NCBI GenBank assembly: GCA_017614315.1
Contig: JAGACA010000006.1
Coordinates: 62,001 to 126,000 of the forward strand
Length of the DNA: 64,000 nucleotides
Reading direction: 5' to 3'
DNA from: Clostridia bacterium
Lineage (GTDB): Bacteria; Bacillota; Clostridia; Christensenellales; CAG-138
This document shows positions 7,990 through 29,506 of the stretch, piece by piece. The notes beneath the pieces are model-generated. The model was not told the DNA's origin. It saw nothing but the letters and a program-made list of their open reading frames with translations, and did no database searches. The position numbers were made by a program, and so were the translations under genes. Within the stretch, counting starts at the first letter, position 1; each line of letters starts with the position of its first letter.

Positions 7990-8701
7990 ACGCGTAAGCA
8001 ACAGGGAGCTCCTTTCCGAGTACCGGTCGGGGGATGAGTCCGCGCTCAGCGCGCTCGTCGAAAACAATCTCGCGCTCGTACGCTCGGTAGCCGCAAGGTT
8101 CTTCTGCAGGGACGACGCGGACGATCTCATGCAGGTCGGCTCGATAGGGCTCGTTAAGGCGATACGCAATTTCGATCCCGCGTTCGGCACGGAGCTTTCG
8201 ACTTACGCCGTCCCGATGATCGCCGGCGAGATACGGCGGTACTTAAGGGACACACAAAGCGTCAAGGCGGGAAGAAAGCTCGGCGAGCTGTCCCGAAGGA
8301 TAGCGGCGATCCTGAACGAAGCGGAAAAGCGCGGCCTCGAGCCGAAGCTTTCGGAGATCGCGGACGAGCTCGGAGTGAGTCCGGAGGAGGCCGCGGAGGC
8401 GGCGGCGCTCAATTCTTTTAACGTTTATCTCGACGAAAAGCCTGAGGACGGGGAGAGCAGGGAGCTTTCTGAGCTCGTTCCAGACACTGCGCGCACCGAG
8501 GACGAAGCTGTGGGGAGGGTGTTCTCGGAGCAGCTCCTTTCACTGCTCGATAAAAACGAGCGTGAGCTGATTGAGATGCGATACCGTCTCGACCTTACGC
8601 AGAAGGAGGCGGCTGCAAGGCTCGGGATAACGCAGCCGAAGGCGTCGAGGATGGAAGCGAGGGCGCTTCTTTTGCTGAGACGGCATATCATAAACGAATG
8701 A
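7979..8701 (+). CDS. sigF: RNA polymerase sporulation sigma factor SigF
   Basis: A 240-residue sigma-70 family protein of the sigma-B/F/G group. Region 2 includes DDLMQVGSIGLVKAIRNFDP and FGTELSTYAVPMIAGEIRRYLRD. Region 3 follows, and region 4 is a helix-turn-helix (LTQKEAAARLGITQPKASRMEARAL). It is the first forespore-specific sigma factor. It is the third gene of the spoIIA operon and is followed directly by a terminator. Confidence 0.95.
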   Translation: MPGERVSNRELLSEYRSGDESALSALVENNLALVRSVAARFFCRDDADDLMQVGSIGLVKAIRNFDPAFGTELSTYAVPMIAGEIRRYLRDTQSVKAGRKLGELSRRIAAILNEAEKRGLEPKLSEIADELGVSPEEAAEAAALNSFNVYLDEKPEDGESRELSELVPDTARTEDEAVGRVFSEQLLSLLDKNERELIEMRYRLDLTQKEAAARLGITQPKASRMEARALLLLRRHIINE

Positions 8702-21754: not shown

Positions 21755-21783
21755 TAACAATTCACGCGTTCCCGTCATAGTAT
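21755..21783 (+). promoter_or_regulatory. Candidate sigma-E-type promoter of the cotJ operon
   Basis: CATAGTAT at 21776-21783 resembles the sigma-E -10 (CATACAAT), with TAACAAT about 14 bases upstream as a weak -35. In B. subtilis cotJ is sigma-E dependent. The match is imperfect. Confidence 0.3.
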
Positions 21784-21815: not shown

Positions 21816-22040
21816 ATGTATATATGCAATTCATGCAGGATCGACGGTACGGCGGAATGTTTTGAAAACACCGTCGCCGCCGGCGACGCCGCAAAAGGTC
21901 TTGCGGGCTGCGGATACGAGACCGCGGCGGCAAAGCTGCCGAGGCTCATCGCGGAAAACCAGAGGTATTCTTCGGGCTTATGTCCCGACTGCGCGCTTGA
22001 AAAGGGGACGATGTTCCCCGAGCTCGTCAGCGTGTATTAA
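21816..22040 (+). CDS. cotJA: CotJA-like spore coat-associated protein
   Basis: A 74-residue protein with a Cys-rich N terminus (YICNSCRIDG and a later CPDC) and a C terminus ALEKGTMFPELVSVY that matches the conserved end of CotJA (GTLFPEL..Y). AAAAGGAGG lies 11 bases before the ATG. It is first in a tight three-gene cotJ operon (10 and 13 bases to the next genes). The four cysteines could bind zinc. The assignment relies on the C-terminal motif plus the operon position. Confidence 0.7.
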   Translation: MYICNSCRIDGTAECFENTVAAGDAAKGLAGCGYETAAAKLPRLIAENQRYSSGLCPDCALEKGTMFPELVSVY

Positions 22041-22050
22041 GGAGGACTAA

Positions 22051-22296
22051 ATGGATCAATGCGAACTTCAAAACAGGATAAGCGAGGTGCAGTTCGTATG
22101 CATCGAGCTGAATCTTTATCTTGACACGCACCCCGACGATCAGGCGGCAAGGAGCGATTACTATACCTACTCAAGACTTTTAGACGAGCTTGTAACCGAG
22201 TACGAAACGGAGTACGGACCCCTTCTCGGCTTCGGCCATTCGCCGGCCGACGTCGGTTGCTGGGTATGCTCCGAATGGCCGTGGGAAAGGAAATAA
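22051..22296 (+). CDS. cotJB: Spore coat protein CotJB
   Basis: An 81-residue protein with the CotJB pattern: ISEVQFVCIELNLYLDTHPDDQAA in the first half, YTYSRLLDELVTEYETEYGPL, and the C-terminal WPWE signature. It acts with CotJC in the inner coat in the mother cell. TAAGGAGG lies before the ATG. Confidence 0.9.
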   Translation: MDQCELQNRISEVQFVCIELNLYLDTHPDDQAARSDYYTYSRLLDELVTEYETEYGPLLGFGHSPADVGCWVCSEWPWERK

Positions 22297-22309: not shown

Positions 22310-22762
22310 ATGTGGATTTATCAGAAAAAACTCGAATTCCCCATCAATATCACCAACCCCGATCTCAAGGTCGCCAAGGCGCTTATGGCGCAGTACGGCG
22401 GGCCCGATTCGGAGCTCGGCGCCGGCATGCGCTATCTTACGCAGAGGTTCTCGATGCCCGATGACCGCATCCGTGCGACGCTTAACGACATAGGCACGGA
22501 GGAGATCGCCCACTGGGAGATGATAGGCACCATGATCCATCAGACGATGGAGAACGCGTCCCTTTCCGATCTCGAGGCGGCCGGGCTTCTCGGCTATTAC
22601 ACCATGCACGGCAAGGCGGTTTATCCCGCCGATCCCAACGGCGTACCGTTCACAGCGAGCTATATCCAGGCGACGGGCGACCCGCTTGCGGATATTGCCG
22701 AGGATATGGCGGCGGAGGGCGCAGCCTGGATAAGTGCGACATTCGAAGCTTTTTTGCTATAA
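22310..22762 (+). CDS. cotJC: Spore coat protein CotJC, N-terminal part (interrupted by a recombinase element)
   Basis: CotJC is a manganese-catalase-like coat protein of about 190 residues. This frame encodes 150 residues. The first 136 are canonical, with predicted Mn ligands E35, E65, H68 and E136 (the last in EDMAAE). The final 14 (GAAWISATFEAFLL) are unrelated to the family and come from element DNA beyond the junction at 22713-22717. The missing C-terminal segment, including the last ligand histidine, is at 29330-29506. Joining 22310-22717 to 29330-29506 gives an uninterrupted 194-codon gene. As it stands the product should be inactive. Confidence 0.95.
   Translation: MWIYQKKLEFPINITNPDLKVAKALMAQYGGPDSELGAGMRYLTQRFSMPDDRIRATLNDIGTEEIAHWEMIGTMIHQTMENASLSDLEAAGLLGYYTMHGKAVYPADPNGVPFTASYIQATGDPLADIAEDMAAEGAAWISATFEAFLL
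22713..22717 (+). repeat. attL core of the cotJC element
   Basis: CGGAG shared with 29325-29329. To its left is cotJC coding sequence; to its right is element DNA (22718-22742) that forms the P' arm, ending in GCGACAT at 22736-22742. Confidence 0.8.
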
Positions 22763-22814
22763 AAGATAATATTTGCAAATTCGGGGTGGAAATCCGTGTA
22801 AAAGCATGTTAAAA

Positions 22815-22825
22815 TACAAATTGTA
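22815..22825 (+). promoter_or_regulatory. Palindrome upstream of the EAL gene
   Basis: TACAA-A-TTGTA, a perfect 11-base palindrome in an AT-rich stretch at the left end of the element, about 100 bases before the first cargo gene. A possible operator or part of a promoter; no regulator can be named. Confidence 0.3.
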
Positions 22826-22837
22826 CGATTTTTTATG

Positions 22838-22888
22838 CGCCGCTTAATGTATGCGGCGGACCGGGGGACTGCCGGCGGGATGACCGCC
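22838..22888 (+). other. Structured leader of the EAL gene
   Basis: Two hairpins: CGCCGC (22838-22843) with GCGGCG (22853-22858), and GGCGG (22874-22878) with CCGCC (22884-22888). They precede the GGGAGGG ribosome binding site. It does not fit the GEMM cyclic-di-GMP riboswitch consensus. Confidence 0.4.
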
Positions 22889-22926
22889 TAAAGGATCGCC
22901 TGCCTGAAAGCGGGAGGGAAAACGAA

Positions 22927-25866
22927 ATGAAGACAAGCGAAAACGGATATCGACGATTTTGGCGCTGCGCGGCTTTGGCCCTGTGCCTTTTCGTATCGAT
23001 CGCGGTCGTGATCCCCGCCGCGGCGCATGCCGGGGACGGCAAAAAGACCGTGCGCGTCGGCTGGTATGAGTCGCCGTTCAATTCCACCGATAAGACAGGC
23101 AGACGTTCCGGCTACGCTTACGAGTATCAGCTTAAGATCGCGGCATACAGCGGCTGGGATTACGTCTATGTAAAGGGCAGCTGGACGGAGCTCATGCAGA
23201 TGCTCGTTGACGGCGATATCGACCTCATGAACGACGTTTCCTACACCGAAGACCGCGCGAAGGACATGCTGTTTTCCGAACTTCCGATGGGCACCGAGGA
23301 GTACTGCGTGTTCATCGCCCCGGGCAACCGCGATATCACGTCTGAGGATTATTCCACGTTGAACGGCAAAAAGGTCGGCGTCAACAAGAACAGCATACAG
23401 GCGGGCATGTTCATCGAATGGGAGGCGCAGCACGGCATCAGGGCAGAGCTTGTCGAGCTCACCTGCACCGAGGTCGAATCCTTGGATCTTCTCGACGCCG
23501 GCAAGCTTGACGCGTACATCACGCTCAACGCCTACGGCGACCCCGAACGCCTCATCCCGGTCTGCAAGATCGGCTATTCCGATTTCTTCTTTGCCGTCAA
23601 CAAGGATCGTCCCGATCTTCTTAAGGATCTCAACGCGGCGATGAGCCGCATACAGGACGAAAACCCCTATTACAATCAGGATATGTTCGAAAGGTTCGTA
23701 CGGCGCTTCGGCTCGAACGCCTTCCTTTCGGCGGTCGAGCTTGAGTGGCTCGCGTCCCACGGATCCATCCGCGTCGGGTATCAGGACAATTATCTTGCCT
23801 TCTGCGCCGCGGATCCTGCGACGGGCGAACTTACAGGCGCGCTGAAGGACTTCCTCGACAGCGCGGAGGACTGCCTCGCTAACGCGCACATAGATTTCGA
23901 GACAAAGGCGTTTCCCACCGCGGCTGCGGCGCTCGACGCGCTCGATAGGGGAGAGGTCGACTGCGTTTTTCCCGCGAACCTCAGCAGCTACGACGGCGAA
24001 CGGATGAAAATTTTCATGACGCCCGCTCTGATGCGCACGGACATTTACGCCGTGGTACGCATGACGGACAGCAGTTTCTTTGCCAAAAAGGAGCGCGTGA
24101 TAGTCGCCGTCAACGAGGGCAACCCAAATTACGACGCGTTCCTGCTCGATAATTTCCCCGGCTGGCGCAAGGTCTATTACAAGACCACCGCCGACTGCCT
24201 TAAGGCCGTTTACGACGGCGTCGCGGACTGTGTGCTCGTCAGCAGCTACCGCTACAACAATATCTCAAGGCTCTGCGAGAAATACTGTCTCGAGCCGTTC
24301 TCTACGGGCGTCGGCCTCGATTACTGCTTCGCCGTCGCCGATGGAGATACCGAGCTTTATTCCATACTCGCTAAGGCCGCGGGGCTCGTCCCGACGTCTA
24401 CGGTCAACGCCGCGCTTTCGATCTATCTTACGGAGGATGCGAAGGTCACGCCGGCTCAGTTCGTGGCCGACAATATCGGTATAATACTCGCGATCATAGC
24501 TGCAGTGCTCATACTCATACTGTTCCTGTTCATAAGGAGCAGCCGCGCGGTCAGAAAGGCGAAGGAGCTCATATCCGCGACCGAAACGGACGGGCTTACC
24601 GGGCTTTACAACCGCGACTACTTCTTCCAATACGCGAACAGGATGCACCGCGAACATCCGGACGCTCCCATGGACGCGATAGTGCTGAACATCGAGCAGT
24701 TCCATTCGATCAATGCATTAAACGGCAGGGAATTCGGCGACCAGGTGCTCCGCGCTCTCGGCAGCGAGATAAAGGCCGTTTCCGACGAAGCGGACGGCAT
24801 CGCGGGCAGGTTCGGCGCGGACAGATTCGATATCTACTGTCGGCATACGGACGATTACCGTCCGATCTACGACCGCCTGCAGGGAACGCTCGACACCCTC
24901 GCTCCGAATGCCAGCATTCGCCTCCGCATGGGCGTTATGCCGTGGCAGGAAAAGCTCGATCCCGTACAGCTCGTCGACAGGGCGCGCGCGGCGTGCAGCA
25001 TGGCGCGCGGGCATTATAAAGAGCATCTGATCGTGTTCGACGACGAGATGCGCGAACGCGAGCTTTACGAACAGCGGCTGCTCAACGATCTGCGGCGCGC
25101 GCTCGACTGCTTTGAGTTCGAGATCTATTATCAGCCGAAGTACGATATCCAGGCCGATCCGCCGAAGCTCGTGAGCGCCGAGGCGCTCATACGCTGGCAG
25201 CATCCCGAGCTCGGCATGATCCCGCCCGACGATTTCGTTCCGCTGTTCGAAAGGAACGGCAAGATCGGCGAGGTAGACAAGTTCGTCTGGGATCAGGCGG
25301 CAAGGCAGATCGCCCGCTGGCGCGCGCAGTTCGGCATGACGATACCCGTATCCGTCAACCTGTCCCGCGTCGACGTACTGGATCCCACGCTCGAGGATAC
25401 TCTCGATTCGATAATCATGCAGAACGGCCTCGAGCATGAAGCGCTCAAGCTCGAGGTAACGGAGTCCGCTTATACAGATAACGCCGACCAGGTGATAATG
25501 GTCGTCGATGCGCTCCGCAGGAAGGGCTATACCGTCGAGATGGACGATTTCGGCACGGGTTACTCCTCGCTCAACATGCTTTCGGCAATGCCGATAGACG
25601 TGCTCAAGATGGACAGGACGTTCATCCGCAATATCGAGCATAACGAGAAGGACATACAGCTCGTCGCTCTTATACTGGGGATCGCGAAAAACCTAAAGAT
25701 ACCGGTGGTCGCGGAGGGCGTCGAGACAGAGTCGCAGCTGCAGCTTCTGAAGAAGCTCGGATGCGCGCTTGTGCAGGGATATTACTTCTCCCGCCCGCTG
25801 CACCCGACCGAGTTCGAGAACGTGATACTTTCGGGCTACCGTGAAGGAAAGCCGCAGGACAACTAA
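22927..25866 (+). CDS. Tandem solute-binding-domain sensor with degenerate GGDEF and EAL (c-di-GMP phosphodiesterase)
   Basis: A 979-residue protein. In order: signal peptide (about 1-33), two extracytoplasmic family-3 solute-binding domains (about 38-270, starting VRVGWYESPFN; and about 275-505, starting IRVGYQDNYLAF), a membrane helix (516-537), a GGDEF fold (about 553-700) and an EAL domain (about 715-965). The GGDEF signature is replaced by FGADRF near residue 626, so cyclase activity is unlikely. The EAL domain keeps SAEALIRW and DDFGTGYSS, so it should hydrolyse cyclic-di-GMP in response to a bound amino acid or similar ligand. It is cargo of the cotJC element, with GGGAGGG before the ATG. 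Confidence 0.9.
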   Translation: MKTSENGYRRFWRCAALALCLFVSIAVVIPAAAHAGDGKKTVRVGWYESPFNSTDKTGRRSGYAYEYQLKIAAYSGWDYVYVKGSWTELMQMLVDGDIDLMNDVSYTEDRAKDMLFSELPMGTEEYCVFIAPGNRDITSEDYSTLNGKKVGVNKNSIQAGMFIEWEAQHGIRAELVELTCTEVESLDLLDAGKLDAYITLNAYGDPERLIPVCKIGYSDFFFAVNKDRPDLLKDLNAAMSRIQDENPYYNQDMFERFVRRFGSNAFLSAVELEWLASHGSIRVGYQDNYLAFCAADPATGELTGALKDFLDSAEDCLANAHIDFETKAFPTAAAALDALDRGEVDCVFPANLSSYDGERMKIFMTPALMRTDIYAVVRMTDSSFFAKKERVIVAVNEGNPNYDAFLLDNFPGWRKVYYKTTADCLKAVYDGVADCVLVSSYRYNNISRLCEKYCLEPFSTGVGLDYCFAVADGDTELYSILAKAAGLVPTSTVNAALSIYLTEDAKVTPAQFVADNIGIILAIIAAVLILILFLFIRSSRAVRKAKELISATETDGLTGLYNRDYFFQYANRMHREHPDAPMDAIVLNIEQFHSINALNGREFGDQVLRALGSEIKAVSDEADGIAGRFGADRFDIYCRHTDDYRPIYDRLQGTLDTLAPNASIRLRMGVMPWQEKLDPVQLVDRARAACSMARGHYKEHLIVFDDEMRERELYEQRLLNDLRRALDCFEFEIYYQPKYDIQADPPKLVSAEALIRWQHPELGMIPPDDFVPLFERNGKIGEVDKFVWDQAARQIARWRAQFGMTIPVSVNLSRVDVLDPTLEDTLDSIIMQNGLEHEALKLEVTESAYTDNADQVIMVVDALRRKGYTVEMDDFGTGYSSLNMLSAMPIDVLKMDRTFIRNIEHNEKDIQLVALILGIAKNLKIPVVAEGVETESQLQLLKKLGCALVQGYYFSRPLHPTEFENVILSGYREGKPQDN

Positions 25867-25893
25867 AAGCATTCGATCAAAGGTGGTACGCCA

Positions 25894-27519
25894 ATGAGAT
25901 CCTTACGAACAAAAATAACGCTTATGACCGCGTGCGTGGTGATCGTTGCCGTCATCGTCGTCACGCTGCTGACGGTCATATTCATTCAAAAGAACGAGAA
26001 GCATAAATCCGACCAGATACTTCTCCTTCTGTGTGAAACGGGCAAAACCAATCTGGACTACTATTTCAACAGCGTCCAGAAGTCGGTCGGGAAGGTGGCT
26101 TCGTTCACCGAGGCCGATCTCGGAGGGCTAGACGACGAAGAGCTCACACGGCATATGGCGGTCGTGGAGAAATACTTTGACGAGATAGCGCACAAGACGA
26201 ACGGCGTCCTGACCTATTATTACCGTATCGATCCGACGGTCTCCGATACGGTAAAGGGCTTTTGGTACATGGATCTTTACGGCGAGGGCTTCGTCGAGCA
26301 TGAGGTGACCGATATCACGCTCTACGACACGAGCGATACGTCGAAGCTCGTTTGGTTCACCGTGCCGAAGTTCGAGGGCAAGGCCATTTGGCTCCCGCCC
26401 TACATCACGGACAACCTCGACAAGCGAGTCATCTCATATAACGTACCGATCTATTGGCACGGACAGTTCGTCGGCGTCGTCGGCATCGAGATCGACTACT
26501 CCACCATGGCGGAGCAGGTCGACAGCATTAGGCTTTATTCCAACGGGTACGCGTTCGTTAACGACGGCGAGGGGAACCTCTTCTATCACCCCAGGATCGA
26601 TGTTTCCACCCTTACCGAGGAGACCAAGCCCGACGTGCCGGAGGGCATAATCAGCAAAAGCACATTCGTAGAGTATACTTTCAACGGGGTGAAGAAAGAA
26701 GCCGCATGGCTCGAGCTCACGAACGGCATGCGGCTGAACGTCGCAGTCCCGGTGTCGGAGGCGGTTGGCGACTGGCAGACGCTCATAAGGAACATACTCA
26801 TCGTCGCCGCCGCAGTGCTCCTCGCGTCCGGCATAGTAGCTATGATCTACACAAGAAGGATCACGAAGCCGCTTGAGGAGCTGACCGAGGCCGCGAACCG
26901 GGTCGATAAAGGCAATTACGATCTCGAGCTGAGCTATAAGGGCGACGACGAGGTAGGAAGGCTGACCAACACCTTCAAGCGTCTTGCCGGACACATGAAG
27001 GATCACATCTCCGACCTGAACAAGAGGATCTACGTCGACGCGCTGACGGCGGTAAGGAACAAGGGCGCGTATGCCGCCTATATCGAGGAGCTCCAGATGC
27101 GCCTTGAGAACACGAACGGAAATATGGATTTCGCGGTGGGCGTTTTCGACTGTGACGATCTTAAATCGATCAACGACAGATACGGCCACGAAAAGGGCGA
27201 CCTGTACCTTAAGACCGCGAGCCGCCTTATTTGCCGCATATTCCAGCACAGCCCCGTTTTCAGGATCGGCGGCGACGAGTTCTCCGTTATACTCGAAAGC
27301 GACGATTACAAAAACATGGACGAGCTCTCGAATAAGTTCGACGAAGCGATGGCGGAGCTCGCGGCGTCGACGCCGAACAAGTGGGAGCAGGTCCACACCT
27401 CGATGGGCATCGCCGTGTACGATCCGCATAACGATCACGCCGTCATAGACGTTGTGCGCCGCGCGGACAAGATCATGTACGAGAACAAGCGCATCCGCAA
27501 GACGGAAAGAGAATCCTGA
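25894..27519 (+). CDS. Cache-HAMP-GGDEF diguanylate cyclase
   Basis: A 541-residue membrane sensor. It has a transmembrane helix at about 8-30, an extracellular dCache-like sensor (about 35-290, with YYYRIDPTVSDT, GFWYMDL and VGVVGIEIDYSTMAEQ), a second helix (about 296-316), HAMP (about 318-370) and GGDEF (about 373-541). The GGDEF motif is intact in FRIGGDEFSVILES (about 458), so it should synthesise cyclic-di-GMP. It lies 27 bases after the EAL gene, so the pair is probably co-transcribed and opposes each other. It is element cargo and is followed by a strong terminator. Confidence 0.92.
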   Translation: MRSLRTKITLMTACVVIVAVIVVTLLTVIFIQKNEKHKSDQILLLLCETGKTNLDYYFNSVQKSVGKVASFTEADLGGLDDEELTRHMAVVEKYFDEIAHKTNGVLTYYYRIDPTVSDTVKGFWYMDLYGEGFVEHEVTDITLYDTSDTSKLVWFTVPKFEGKAIWLPPYITDNLDKRVISYNVPIYWHGQFVGVVGIEIDYSTMAEQVDSIRLYSNGYAFVNDGEGNLFYHPRIDVSTLTEETKPDVPEGIISKSTFVEYTFNGVKKEAAWLELTNGMRLNVAVPVSEAVGDWQTLIRNILIVAAAVLLASGIVAMIYTRRITKPLEELTEAANRVDKGNYDLELSYKGDDEVGRLTNTFKRLAGHMKDHISDLNKRIYVDALTAVRNKGAYAAYIEELQMRLENTNGNMDFAVGVFDCDDLKSINDRYGHEKGDLYLKTASRLICRIFQHSPVFRIGGDEFSVILESDDYKNMDELSNKFDEAMAELAASTPNKWEQVHTSMGIAVYDPHNDHAVIDVVRRADKIMYENKRIRKTERES

Positions 27520-27532
27520 CAAGCGTCAACGA

Positions 27533-27567
27533 AAAAACCGCCCCCGGTCATACCGGGGGTTTTTTTC
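27533..27567 (+). terminator. Intrinsic terminator after the c-di-GMP cargo genes
   Basis: CCCCCGGT (27541-27548), loop CAT, ACCGGGGG (27552-27559) and a run of seven or more T. It separates cargo transcription from the recombinase unit. Confidence 0.9.
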
Positions 27568-27568
27568 A

Positions 27569-27598
27569 TGCATTTACCGCGGATCTTACGCATATTAT
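27569..27598 (+). promoter_or_regulatory. Candidate mother-cell (sigma-E-like) promoter for the recombinase unit
   Basis: CATATTAT at 27591-27598 resembles the sigma-E -10; TGCATTT lies 15 bases upstream. It sits directly after the terminator and before the small frame and recombinase. The match is only moderate. Confidence 0.25.
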
Positions 27599-27618
27599 CC
27601 GTCGAAAGGCGGCGAAAA

Positions 27619-27792
27619 ATGAAGGAACGGATAAACACAGTCACAAGCGTTTTTGCAAACGGCAAAGAGCCGGATCGGGAGGCCTTTGCCGAACGTTGGG
27701 CGGAGATAATCAACGAAGCCGGAAAAGCGGAGAGGGGGAAGGCAGATGAAGGCGGCCATATACTGCCGTCTGTCCAGCGAGGACAGGGATAA
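27619..27792 (+). CDS. Small protein overlapping the recombinase start
   Basis: A 57-residue frame (begins MKERINTVTSVFANGKE; includes EAFAERWAEIINEAGKAERGK). It has AAAGG upstream of ATG 27619 and its end overlaps the recombinase start by 47 bases, implying translational coupling. I recognise no family. Small genes next to serine integrases are sometimes recombination directionality factors, so that is one possibility, but nothing in the sequence proves it. Confidence 0.5.
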   Translation: MKERINTVTSVFANGKEPDREAFAERWAEIINEAGKAERGKADEGGHILPSVQRGQG

Positions 27793-29296
27793 GCGGCCGG
27801 ACGGCGACAGCGAGAGCATACAGAACCAGAGATCGATGCTTTTAAGGTTCGCTGCGGAAAGAGGCTGGGAGATCTATGATATCTATTCCGACGACGACTG
27901 TGCCGGCACCGACAGGAAAAGGCCGGAGTTCAACCGCCTGCTTAACGATGCGGAGGCAAAAAGGTTCGACGTTATACTGTGCAAGACCCAGTCGCGCTTC
28001 ACCCGCGAGATCGAGCTGGTCGAAAAGTACATAAACACCCTGTTCCCCATCTGGGGGATACGGTTCATGAGCGTCGTCGACAACGCGGACACCGCGGTGA
28101 AAAGCAACGCAAGATCGAGACAGATAAACGGGCTCATCAACGAATGGTACCTGCAGGATCTGTCGGAAAACGTCAGGAGCGTGCTCGCGAACAAAAGACG
28201 TCAGGGACTTTTTACCGGCTCGCAGCCGCTTTACGGATACGTCAAGGATCCGGACAGGAAGGGACGTCTTCTGATCGACGAAGAGGCTGCGGAGGTGGTC
28301 AGGGAGATATTCATGCTCTATGCGGGAGGTATGAGCAGTACAGAGATCGCAAGAGAGCTCGACCGGCGCGGGATACCGAACCCCACGGAGTACAAGCGCC
28401 GGCGCGGCATATATAACGGTCATGCGTCGAAATACGGCTCGCTGTGGAGCGCGGGAACGATCTCCGATATGCTGAAAAACGAGATGTACATAGGAAACAT
28501 GGTTCAGGGAAGATACGGGAGCGTTTCGTACAAGACGCGGCAGAACAGACCGAAACCGAGATCGGAGTGGGTGATCGTGAAGGGTACGCACGAGCCAGTC
28601 GTCGGTGCGGAGCTCTGGAACAGGGTGCAGGCGCTCATGGGTCGGAAGACCGCGCAGCGTTCCCCGAAAAGGGTCGGAATCTTTGCGGGAAAGGCGCGAT
28701 GCGCGTTTTGCGGATCCGCTTTAAGGAGCTCAAAGCCCTCCGCGAGGACGCACGGCGCGGATAAAAGATATCTCGTTTGCCCGAAACATTACGCGGACGC
28801 CGGCTCCTGCCCCGGCGCATGCGTCGCCGAGGACAGGCTCGAAGGGTATTTGCTCGCGGAGCTCAAAAGGCTGACGGAAGCGCACCTCGACTTCGCTAAG
28901 CTCGAAACGAGGCTCGATGCGCTCTGCGGCGGGGGCGCAGGCAAGGCAGAGGCCGAGATCGCGGCGTACGAAAACGCGGCTTCCGACTGCGTGAAGGGAA
29001 TAAAAGAACTGTATCTCGATAAGGTGAAGGGGGTCGTGACGGAGGAGACCTTCATCGAGCTGTCAAAGGAGCTCGAGCGGGAAAGGAACAGGCTCAGCGC
29101 GCTTATCGAAGCCGAAACGGCAAGGCTCGCCGAGCTTCGGGAAAACGCGGATCGCATATCCCGGCGCGTCGAAAGGATACTCTTGTGCGATCGCCTTACA
29201 GGGCATGCGGTGAACGCGCTGGTCGACAGCATCGCCGTCGGCAGGCGCATCCCCGGCACGCATGAGGTGCCCGTCGAGATCCTCTGGCGGTTTTGA
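27746..29296 (+). CDS. Large serine recombinase of the cotJC element
   Basis: A full-length 516-residue large serine recombinase. The resolvase-type catalytic domain (1-150) has the active-site serine in YCRLSSEDRD (S10/S11), SESIQNQRSML and an Arg-rich helix with QSRFTREIELVEKYIN. The recombinase domain (about 165-300) has GLFTGSQPLYGYVKD, EIFMLYAGGMSSTEIARELDRRGIPNP and WSAGTISDMLKNEMYIGN. A zinc ribbon follows (CAFCG...CPKHYADAGSC), then a coiled coil (about 395-475). It should catalyse integration and excision between the att sites. GGGGAAGG precedes the ATG, and it ends 28 bases from the attR core, the usual position of an integrase. Confidence 0.97.
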   Translation: MKAAIYCRLSSEDRDKRPDGDSESIQNQRSMLLRFAAERGWEIYDIYSDDDCAGTDRKRPEFNRLLNDAEAKRFDVILCKTQSRFTREIELVEKYINTLFPIWGIRFMSVVDNADTAVKSNARSRQINGLINEWYLQDLSENVRSVLANKRRQGLFTGSQPLYGYVKDPDRKGRLLIDEEAAEVVREIFMLYAGGMSSTEIARELDRRGIPNPTEYKRRRGIYNGHASKYGSLWSAGTISDMLKNEMYIGNMVQGRYGSVSYKTRQNRPKPRSEWVIVKGTHEPVVGAELWNRVQALMGRKTAQRSPKRVGIFAGKARCAFCGSALRSSKPSARTHGADKRYLVCPKHYADAGSCPGACVAEDRLEGYLLAELKRLTEAHLDFAKLETRLDALCGGGAGKAEAEIAAYENAASDCVKGIKELYLDKVKGVVTEETFIELSKELERERNRLSALIEAETARLAELRENADRISRRVERILLCDRLTGHAVNALVDSIAVGRRIPGTHEVPVEILWRF

Positions 29297-29300
29297 AAAA

Positions 29301-29329
29301 ATGTCGCGTCTTTTCAGCCTGCACCGGAG
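29301..29329 (+). repeat. attR: P arm and core of the cotJC element
   Basis: ATGTCGC (29301-29307) and CAGCCTGCACC (29315-29325) are the element-side arm; the core CGGAG is 29325-29329. cotJC coding resumes at 29330. The P arm mirrors the P' arm at 22718-22742. Confidence 0.8.
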
Positions 29330-29506
29330 CAGAAGGCGCGTGCGACATATGAGCACATCATGAATCAGACCGACTGCGAGCAGTATCTCGCGCCTCTGCG
29401 CTTTTTGAGAGAGCGCGAGGTTGTGCACTTCCAGAGATTCTCGGAATGCTGGAACATCTTAAAGGAGCTTTATCCCGACGGAAAGCAGAACAGGATGTAC
29501 AGATAA
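29330..29506 (+). CDS. cotJC: Spore coat protein CotJC, C-terminal part (separated by the element)
   Basis: 58 codons plus TAA, continuing codon 137 of cotJC. It begins QKARATYEHIMNQT and contains LRFLREREVVHFQRFSE, the conserved CotJC/manganese-catalase C-terminal motif with the last metal-ligand histidine (H169 of the joined protein). It has no start codon or ribosome binding site of its own at this position. It remains fully open with conserved residues, as expected if the gene is still rebuilt and selected. Confidence 0.95.
   Translation, partial: QKARATYEHIMNQTDCEQYLAPLRFLREREVVHFQRFSECWNILKELYPDGKQNRMYR

What the first reader, a model, noticed from the sequence alone, without database searches (positions are those of the whole stretch)
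22310..29506. cotJC is split by a 6.6-kb skin-like element with its own large serine recombinase
Seen directly: codons 1-136 of cotJC (22310-22717) end where family homology stops. The exact continuation, starting QKARATYEHIM and including LREREVVHFQRF, is at 29330-29506. Between them lie a complete large serine recombinase and two cargo genes. Deleting the 6612 bp between the CGGAG copies restores a 194-residue CotJC with all predicted Mn ligands (E35, E65, H68, E136, H169) and no frame change. Known parallels are the sigK skin elements of B. subtilis and C. difficile, SPbeta in spsM, and the element in spoVFB of B. weihenstephanensis. I do not know of this particular arrangement being described. 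Inference: the element is cut out in the mother cell so that CotJC can be made in the coat, while the germ line keeps it.
Basis: partly seen in the sequence, partly recalled or inferred. Interest (0 to 1): 0.96.

Follow-up and report, generated by a model that had tools for sequence, protein, structure and literature searches.

The report
Spore-coat gene split by excisable DNA
In this unnamed relative of spore-forming Clostridia, the gene for a spore-coat enzyme (CotJC) is cut in two by a 6.6-kb DNA element that carries its own recombinase and is predicted to be cut out in the mother cell during sporulation so that the enzyme can be made, and the same gene is split, at one to three places, in at least 31 of 200 sampled genomes with a match to it.

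Summary
cotJC (22310-22717 + 29330-29506) is split at codon 136 by a 6,612-bp element with a complete large serine recombinase (LSR) and two c-di-GMP cargo genes. Joined, CotJC aligns without a gap to the intact protein of all 10 genus relatives that have it (93.8% to the nearest, with the same neighbours and no insert); the assembly holds no second copy. The would-be joined ends form an imperfect palindrome centred on GA, in the codon of Mn-ligand Glu136. It is no one-off: 76 of the 80 best LSR relatives in titled genomes lie near a CotJC piece broken there, and several LSR lineages split cotJC at three Mn-ligand motifs: at least 31 of 200 class genomes with a match (control SpoIVA: 2 of 218). 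Some genes are in three or four pieces. A conserved ~48-aa gene precedes most of these LSRs (77 of 96 loci by pattern); 52 of 56 non-redundant upstreams have a sigmaE-type CATA. I conclude: a skin-like family predicted to excise in the mother cell, with a new host gene and a multi-piece architecture. Excision is unshown; SpoIVA was not found in this assembly; LSRs at the other sites lack the promoter; elements also move between hosts.

The parts
21755..21783 (+). sigmaE-like promoter of the cotJ operon (TAACAAT-N14-CATAGTAT)
   Evidence: best match, -10 starts 40 nt before cotJA; a -10 of the form CATA[GT]TAT is the best match before cotJA in 5 of 10 sibling loci (L080, L081, L082, L085, L086); prediction only
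21816..22040 (+). cotJA
   Evidence: PF11007, E 1.3e-6
22051..22296 (+). cotJB
   Evidence: PF12652, E 2.2e-26
22310..22717 (+). 5' piece of cotJC (codons 1-136)
   Evidence: PF05067, E 6.3e-37; joined product gap-free to the 10 genus relatives that have CotJC
22713..22717 (+). left copy of the 5-bp overlap CGGAG; inferred core GA at 22715-22716
22717..22740 (+). right arm of the hypothetical attP
   Evidence: 16 of 24 positions complementary to 29303-29326
22718..29329 (+). the intervening element, 6,612 bp
   Evidence: absent from the cotJC of the 10 siblings that have the gene
22927..25866 (+). cargo 1: SBP_bac_3 + GGDEF + EAL protein, 979 aa
   Evidence: no match at 1e-60 in 12 of 12 genus relatives, 53% paralogue elsewhere in the genome
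25894..27519 (+). cargo 2: dCache + HAMP + GGDEF protein, 541 aa
27541..27566 (+). terminator-like hairpin and T-run between cargo and recombinase unit
   Evidence: read by eye; no terminator scan was run
27570..27598 (+). predicted sigmaE-type promoter GCATTTA-N14-CATATTAT of the small ORF/LSR unit
   Evidence: 28 nt before the small ORF; scores 10 of 14, near the shuffle mean (9.4), so its weight comes from relatives
27619..27792 (+). small ORF, 57 aa, overlaps the LSR start; candidate recombination directionality factor
   Evidence: member of the ~48-aa family conserved 5' of these LSRs (25% identical to the first row of the alignment); no Pfam, NCBIfam or PHROGs match
27746..29296 (+). large serine recombinase, 516 aa
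   Evidence: Resolvase, Recombinase, Zn_ribbon_recom; inside the codon-136 LSR clade, on a long branch
29303..29326 (+). left arm of the hypothetical attP
29325..29329 (+). right copy of CGGAG; inferred core GA at 29327-29328
29330..29506 (+). 3' piece of cotJC (codons 137-194 and stop)

Best explanation
The 6.6-kb segment is a skin-like gene-intervening element that splits cotJC at the codon of Mn-ligand Glu136, and its large serine recombinase, likely with the adjacent 57-aa protein as directionality factor, is predicted to excise it in the mother cell during sporulation and so restore CotJC. Steps shown by sequence: insertion with a precise 5-bp overlap, in-frame restoration on paper, no second copy in the assembly, a recombinase clade dedicated to this codon, a conserved small ORF before it. 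Steps inferred: sigmaE (perhaps with SpoIIID) turns on the small ORF/LSR unit; the complex recombines attL with attR at the GA core; the circle is lost with the dying mother cell while the spore keeps the element. SigmaE also drives cotJ in B. subtilis (title of a paper in the reference list of PMC5025042), so the two events would fall together. The element family spreads between hosts as a mobile islet with variable cargo and would cost the spore little because it leaves only the terminal cell.
For: Uninterrupted cotJC in the 10 genus relatives that have it, joined CotJC 93.8% identical to the nearest, with conserved neighbours. No intact copy found. 76 of 80 LSR relatives in titled genomes carry a CotJC piece with its edge at codon 136; codon 136 begins GA in 38 of 38 5' junctions (one mis-mapped row, L043, dropped) and is GAG/GAA in 70 of 70 3' junctions. 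LSR tree: 58 of 60 LSRs labelled as codon-136 in one clade with 100% SH-aLRT that holds the window's. 52 of 56 non-redundant upstream regions have CATA 22-50 nt before the small ORF (shuffles: mean 7.8, most 16 of 200); sigmaE score z 13.4 against 2.5 for sigmaA; 300 other gene upstreams z -0.2. Of 70 3' pieces, 66 end on their contig and none of these stops before 44 codons, 4 run off; summed dN/dS 0.25 over 24 pairs; the window's pieces 0.026 and 0.069. A sigE gene and a sigK-family gene are present. Of 31 class genomes with clearly split cotJC, 28 have SpoIVA over cut-off.
Against: No read or culture evidence of excision; circle searches gave nothing usable. SpoIVA is absent from this assembly though 11 of 13 genus genomes (this one counted) have it, so sporulation of this very organism is unproven. 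The window's own promoter scores 10 of 14, near the shuffle mean; the cotJA positive control is weak (z 2.3). LSRs at sites 1 and 2 lack the small ORF and the promoter signal (z 1.8, 26 LSRs). In 20 of the 22 listed pairs with LSR dS below 1 the LSR is less diverged than the cotJC pieces it flanks (the list was cut at 45 pairs), so the low dN/dS may largely predate insertion. In a passage of PMC11222575 C. difficile cotCB and cotD mutants are said to have reduced catalase activity but no significant coat defect, so pressure to restore CotJC may be modest.
Confidence: 0.74

Rival explanations
1. An ordinary integrative element uses conserved cotJC codons as its attB; excision serves transfer and is not tied to sporulation, and carriers simply go without CotJC.
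For: LSR near-identity across divergent hosts shows horizontal movement; cargo is accessory; site-1 and site-2 LSRs show no sigmaE signal; most LSR clusters are site-specific and disrupt target genes (passages of PMC10083194).
Against: SigmaE-type promoter signal before the small ORF/LSR unit across relatives; pieces stay open with low dN/dS; 28 of 31 split genomes keep the sporulation gene SpoIVA; among L139, L163 and L175 the LSR (dS 0.30-0.70) and the 3' piece (dS 0.40-0.64) diverged to a like extent with no amino-acid change in the piece.
Confidence: 0.18
2. A dead insertion: this lineage no longer sporulates or needs CotJC, and the pieces are fossils.
For: SpoIVA not found in this 1.71-Mb assembly. 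One of two match rows for a sigG-like gene reports a TGA, though in an open frame of 264 aa; not resolved.
Against: A sigE gene and a sigK-family gene are present; both pieces and the LSR are open; dN/dS 0.026 and 0.069; splits of the same gene recur across the class.
Confidence: 0.06
3. An assembly chimera joins unrelated contigs.
For: Draft genome of 21 contigs.
Against: Perfect 5-bp overlap, palindromic joined ends, flank order as in the nearest sibling; split cotJC in genomes of one contig (G225, G278, G134, G354); SpoIVA is almost never broken in the same sample.
Confidence: 0.02

Closest known systems
skin element in sigK (B. subtilis; C. difficile skinCd)
   Same: LSR-bearing element inside the coding sequence of a mother-cell gene; small directionality factor; sigmaE and SpoIIID control that factor in C. 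difficile (PMC5025042, abstract and passages); in B. subtilis the factor gene skr lies at the end of spoIVCA that encodes the recombinase's N-terminal region (PMC6957869, passage), like the overlapping small ORF here
   Different: Host gene is cotJC, a structural coat enzyme; in relatives the host gene can be broken at two or three places at once; no phage structural genes among the proteins scanned; spread over many families
gin in gerE (B. cereus ATCC10987)
   Same: Non-phage intervening element excised in mid-sporulation by an LSR plus a second factor (PMC5595907, abstract and passages)
   Different: 28.6 kb with three recombinases; other target; one insertion
SP-beta in spsM, vfbin in spoVFB, yin in yabG
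   Same: Other sporulation genes rejoined by excision (PMC4191935 listing; PMC10747680 and PMC6957869 passages); the SP-beta unit is attL-sprB-sprA-attR, factor gene next to the integrase
   Different: Prophage or prophage-like; single insertions; other genes
LSRs dedicated to one gene in the survey of Durrant et al.
   Same: Diverse LSRs converge on one conserved site in one gene (prolyl isomerase example; PMC10083194 passages)
   Different: In the main text 'spore' and 'catalase' do not occur and 'sporulation' only in a reference (supplements not seen); no developmental promoter discussed in the passages seen

Membership tests
Sporulation gene-intervening (skin-like) element | Lies inside the coding sequence of a sporulation gene | tested here: met
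   cotJC, between cotJA-cotJB and clostripain
Sporulation gene-intervening (skin-like) element | Carries its own site-specific recombinase | tested here: met
   complete LSR
Sporulation gene-intervening (skin-like) element | Precise excision would restore the reading frame | tested here: met
   by joining the flanks on paper: 194 aa, gap-free to the 10 genus relatives that have CotJC (over 187-194 residues)
Sporulation gene-intervening (skin-like) element | Recombination directionality factor | tested here: inconclusive
   conserved small ORF in the right place; activity untested
Sporulation gene-intervening (skin-like) element | Mother-cell control of excision | tested here: inconclusive
   sigmaE-type promoter enriched in the clade; the window's own copy is unremarkable in score
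Sporulation gene-intervening (skin-like) element | Excision observed during sporulation | not testable with these tools
   no reads or cultures
Prophage | Phage structural genes in the element | tested here: not met
   cargo is two c-di-GMP enzymes; none among 10 of 21 non-LSR ORFs of five other elements (one is an HTH protein of CI-repressor type)
Large serine recombinase | Resolvase + Recombinase + zinc-ribbon domains | tested here: met
CotJC / Mn catalase | Family profile and five Mn ligands in the joined product | tested here: met

The most novel reading that the evidence does not exclude
cotJC in Clostridia is a gene assembled at every sporulation: up to three unrelated recombinase elements, each lodged at a metal-ligand motif, are spliced out of mother-cell DNA to join up to four pieces, a bacterial counterpart of the internal eliminated sequences of ciliates, and the elements have evolved mother-cell promoters that make cotJC a low-cost harbour.
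Probability: 0.5. Interest if true: 0.92.

Novelty: new variant of a known kind. Interest (0 to 1): 0.82.

Why it matters
If right, developmental DNA excision is not a curiosity of a few Bacillus and Clostridium genes but a recurrent state of one coat gene across Clostridia, with genes in three or four pieces that need several recombinases to act in one cell. It names culturable carriers to test, offers recombinases with their att sites and candidate directionality factors, and would explain truncated or missing cotJC in genome annotations. It also makes testable the published idea (PMC6957869, passage) that such elements settle in mother-cell genes because the mother cell dies and the spore genome keeps them.

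Tried and rejected
Circular form: an exact attP pattern in viral contigs gave 0 hits; a looser one gave 20 contigs that I did not examine and judge likely chance. OY725852.1, a 23.9-kb record filed as a circular plasmid, looked like an excised circle but carries the cotJC 3' piece next to the LSR, so it is integrated sequence. Phage records hold only relatives of at most 42% identity.

Sites 1 and 2: no shared small ORF, no sigmaE enrichment (26 LSRs, z 1.8). The test took up to 330 nt before the LSR with start codons guessed by script, so a factor gene elsewhere, as in C. difficile, is not excluded.

Other LSRs of this genome: three more; none lies next to an evident sporulation gene by reading their ORFs (one is at a contig start). 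I did not scan all sporulation genes for splits.

Structure: the small-ORF family is predicted as one helix, mean pLDDT 74; I did not run a fold search on so small a model.

Dropped rows: contig breaks inside cotJC in G046 and G048 were not counted as splits. Of the 43 weak-hit class genomes, picked by eye, 3 are not split (G276, G162, G344) and 9 unclear (G261, G240, G243, G385, G390, G327, G381, G131, G117) and were left out of the 31. L043 was dropped from the 5' junctions as mis-mapped.

Cargo role: the two c-di-GMP genes were not seen in the five other elements I scanned in part, so I do not make c-di-GMP part of the mechanism.
Full report
What is there. The window carries cotJA, cotJB and the first 136 codons of cotJC, then 6,612 bp, then codons 137-194 of cotJC and a clostripain gene. 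The two boundaries share CGGAG and nothing more. Joined, the gene encodes 194 residues. Of 12 genus relatives 10 have a CotJC match, all uninterrupted; tblastn aligns the joined protein to these 10 without a gap, over 187 to 194 residues, 83.8 to 93.8% identical. The nearest, G086, also has the same upstream aldo-keto reductase gene, cotJA, cotJB and the downstream clostripain gene. The five Mn ligands E35, E65, H68, E136 and H169 are present and align with Anabaena Alr3090 and other Mn catalases of known structure. The profile finds only these two pieces in the 90.66%-complete assembly.

The element. It holds two c-di-GMP enzymes, then a terminator-like hairpin (by eye), a 57-aa ORF and a 516-aa large serine recombinase whose start the small ORF overlaps. 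The first cargo gene has no match at E 1e-60 in 12 of 12 genus relatives but a 53% paralogue in this genome. GC content is close to the flanks (0.567 against 0.575 and 0.572). On paper, the excised ends would meet as an imperfect 50-bp palindrome with GA at its centre, 16 of 24 arm pairs complementary.

The recombinase clade is dedicated to this codon. An alignment of eight LSRs scanned against 84,980 species genomes gave 348 relatives, of which the best 80 were kept. In 76 of the 80 loci a CotJC piece has its edge at codon 136, and in 69 an LSR of 400 aa or more lies within 700 nt of such an edge. Both pieces lie in the fetched stretch in 10 of the 76; in the rest the other piece is outside it or not found. 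The scan selects close kin, so this says the clade is dedicated, not how common it is. Carriers include strains with culture-type names: Roseburia faecis M72, Anaerotignum lactatifermentans DSM 14214, Flintibacter muris DSM 110149, Anaerotruncus colihominis JM4-15, Blautia sp. An249, Parablautia intestinalis D8-82 and Diplocloster modestus ASD4241. Codon 136 starts with GA in 38 of 38 5' junctions and is GAG or GAA in 70 of 70 3' junctions. The LSR-proximal arm meets the 3' piece in some elements and the 5' piece in others, so elements sit in both orientations (64 and 22 LSRs before dereplication).

cotJC is hit at three motifs. In the family of the window's genome (103 genomes, 86 with a match), breaks fall near codons 29-38, 58-66 and 136, that is by E35, by E65/H68 and at E136. 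By my reading, 17 of the 86, the window's genome counted, have a CotJC piece abutting an LSR. Three genomes with pieces also have an intact match (G013, G016, G032). In an even sample of 292 class genomes at least 85% complete, 200 have a match (its list of places was cut). I picked by eye 43 with weak best matches for a closer look: 31 have two or more complementary pieces set apart, 3 are not split, 9 are unclear; genomes with very weak matches only (for example G135, G187) were not re-examined, and strong-match genomes may hide further split copies. In 11 of the 31 the pieces are collinear on one contig, among them the one-contig genomes G225, G278, G134 (157 kb apart) and G354. As a control for broken assemblies, SpoIVA, 2.5 times longer, is over its cut-off in 216 of the 218 genomes of the same-size sample that match it (Fisher P 1e-8 for 31 of 200 against 2 of 218, with the caveat that the 31 were judged by eye). 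28 of the 31 have SpoIVA.

Genes in three and four pieces. G225 (4.07 Mb, one contig) has codons 1-33, 30-63 and 60-198 in order, with 4.7 and 10.6 kb between; G263 and the Lachnospiraceae contig L148 also have three collinear pieces; G247 has four, on three contigs, with homology ending at the three sites. The LSR tree (114 rows, quick search, several long branches) puts 58 of 60 LSRs labelled codon-136 in one clade (SH-aLRT 100), while the 10 site-1 LSRs fall in about four groups and the 15 site-2 LSRs in two; all labels need 20 changes against 48 in shuffles. So several LSR lineages converged on one gene.

Control signal. A small ORF with the consensus C-K-S-V-F-K...W-I-E-L-I-N-x-L-E-K precedes most of these LSRs; the automatic pattern found it in 77 of 96 LSR loci and more are visible by eye; in 48 aligned copies F15 is invariant. 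Of 56 non-redundant upstream regions 52 have CATA 22-50 nt before it (shuffles: mean 7.8, most 16 of 200); the best sigmaE-type match averages 10.80 of 14 against 9.40 in shuffles (z 13.4), sigmaK-type z 8.4, sigmaF/G 3.3, sigmaA 2.5; 36 of 56 best sites share spacing 15 and CATA. 300 upstreams of other genes give z -0.2. The promoter patterns are recalled consensus forms, and sigmaE and sigmaK -10 forms overlap. Copies are related by descent, so z overstates independence. Inside the spacer the clade conserves G-N-A-C-N-N-G-C, which resembles the recalled B. subtilis SpoIIID box; the C. difficile box KRTAACARK (PMC5025042, passage) fits less well. The window's own site, GCATTTA-N14-CATATTAT, scores only 10, but its -10 equals that before cotJA in two siblings (L081, L082). 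The cotJA set as positive control (37 upstreams) reached only z 2.3.

Selection and movement. Of 70 3' pieces 66 end on their contig, none before 44 codons past codon 136, and 4 run off; 24 non-overlapping pairs give summed dN/dS 0.25. Against the intact G086 gene the window's pieces give 0.026 (codons 1-135) and 0.069 (137-194); seven intact pairs give 0.080-0.146 and 0.027-0.132. In 20 of the 22 listed pairs with LSR dS below 1 the LSR is less diverged than the cotJC piece (for example identical LSRs with piece dS 1.1), so elements move between hosts; among L139, L163 and L175 the two diverged to a like extent overall and the piece has dN 0. Cargo elsewhere (10 of 21 non-LSR ORFs of five elements): a 2,895-aa repeat surface protein, a GmrSD and a Schlafen-type protein, an ABC transporter with a histidine kinase, a prepilin-type peptidase, an HTH protein of CI-repressor type and a recombinase C-terminal remnant.

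Comparison with print. Sporulation genes reported as split in this way are sigK, spsM, spoVFB, gerE and yabG (passages of PMC10747680 and PMC5595907), and a prophage disrupts kamA (PMC6957869, passage). The last also says that almost all such elements sit in mother-cell genes and that the mother cell dies while the spore genome keeps the element. I found no report of cotJC as such a target in nine searches of the held open-access library, most of whose listings were cut; (cotJC with recombinase and excision) listed all its 4 papers, of which I saw passages of one and the listing of the rest. I saw passages of eight papers in all. Subscription papers and supplements were not searched.

Judgement. 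The anatomy and its recurrence are firm. Mother-cell excision is the reading that best joins the promoter signal, the maintained pieces and the known parallels, but it rests on inference; the missing SpoIVA leaves this organism's own sporulation open.

Noticed in passing
G000 (whole genome): SpoIVA is not found although 11 of 13 genus genomes, G000 counted, have it; a gap or a loss.
   Followed up: partly
window about 7997-8692: A sigF/sigG-like sporulation sigma factor gene (C1:69997-70692).
   Followed up: no
L046, L047, L089: In G046 and G048 contigs end inside cotJC, in G046 with about 30 codons of overlap between the two ends; could reflect mixed excised and integrated forms or mere strain variation.
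   Followed up: no
L240: OY725852.1, filed as a circular plasmid of Subdoligranulum variabile, carries the 3' piece of a split cotJC next to a codon-136 LSR.
   Followed up: yes
L033 5105-13789: The codon-136 element of G058 carries one 2,895-aa beta-helix/InlB-repeat surface protein as its main cargo.
   Followed up: no
PMC11222575 (passage): In C. difficile R20291 a third cotJC homologue lies next to prophage phi027; whether it is a related target was not examined.
   Followed up: no
L200, L201, L202, L148: cotJC in three collinear pieces on one contig.
   Followed up: partly
junction table (L033-L180): Codon-136 elements occur in both orientations, with the LSR-proximal arm on either side of the GA core.
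   Followed up: partly
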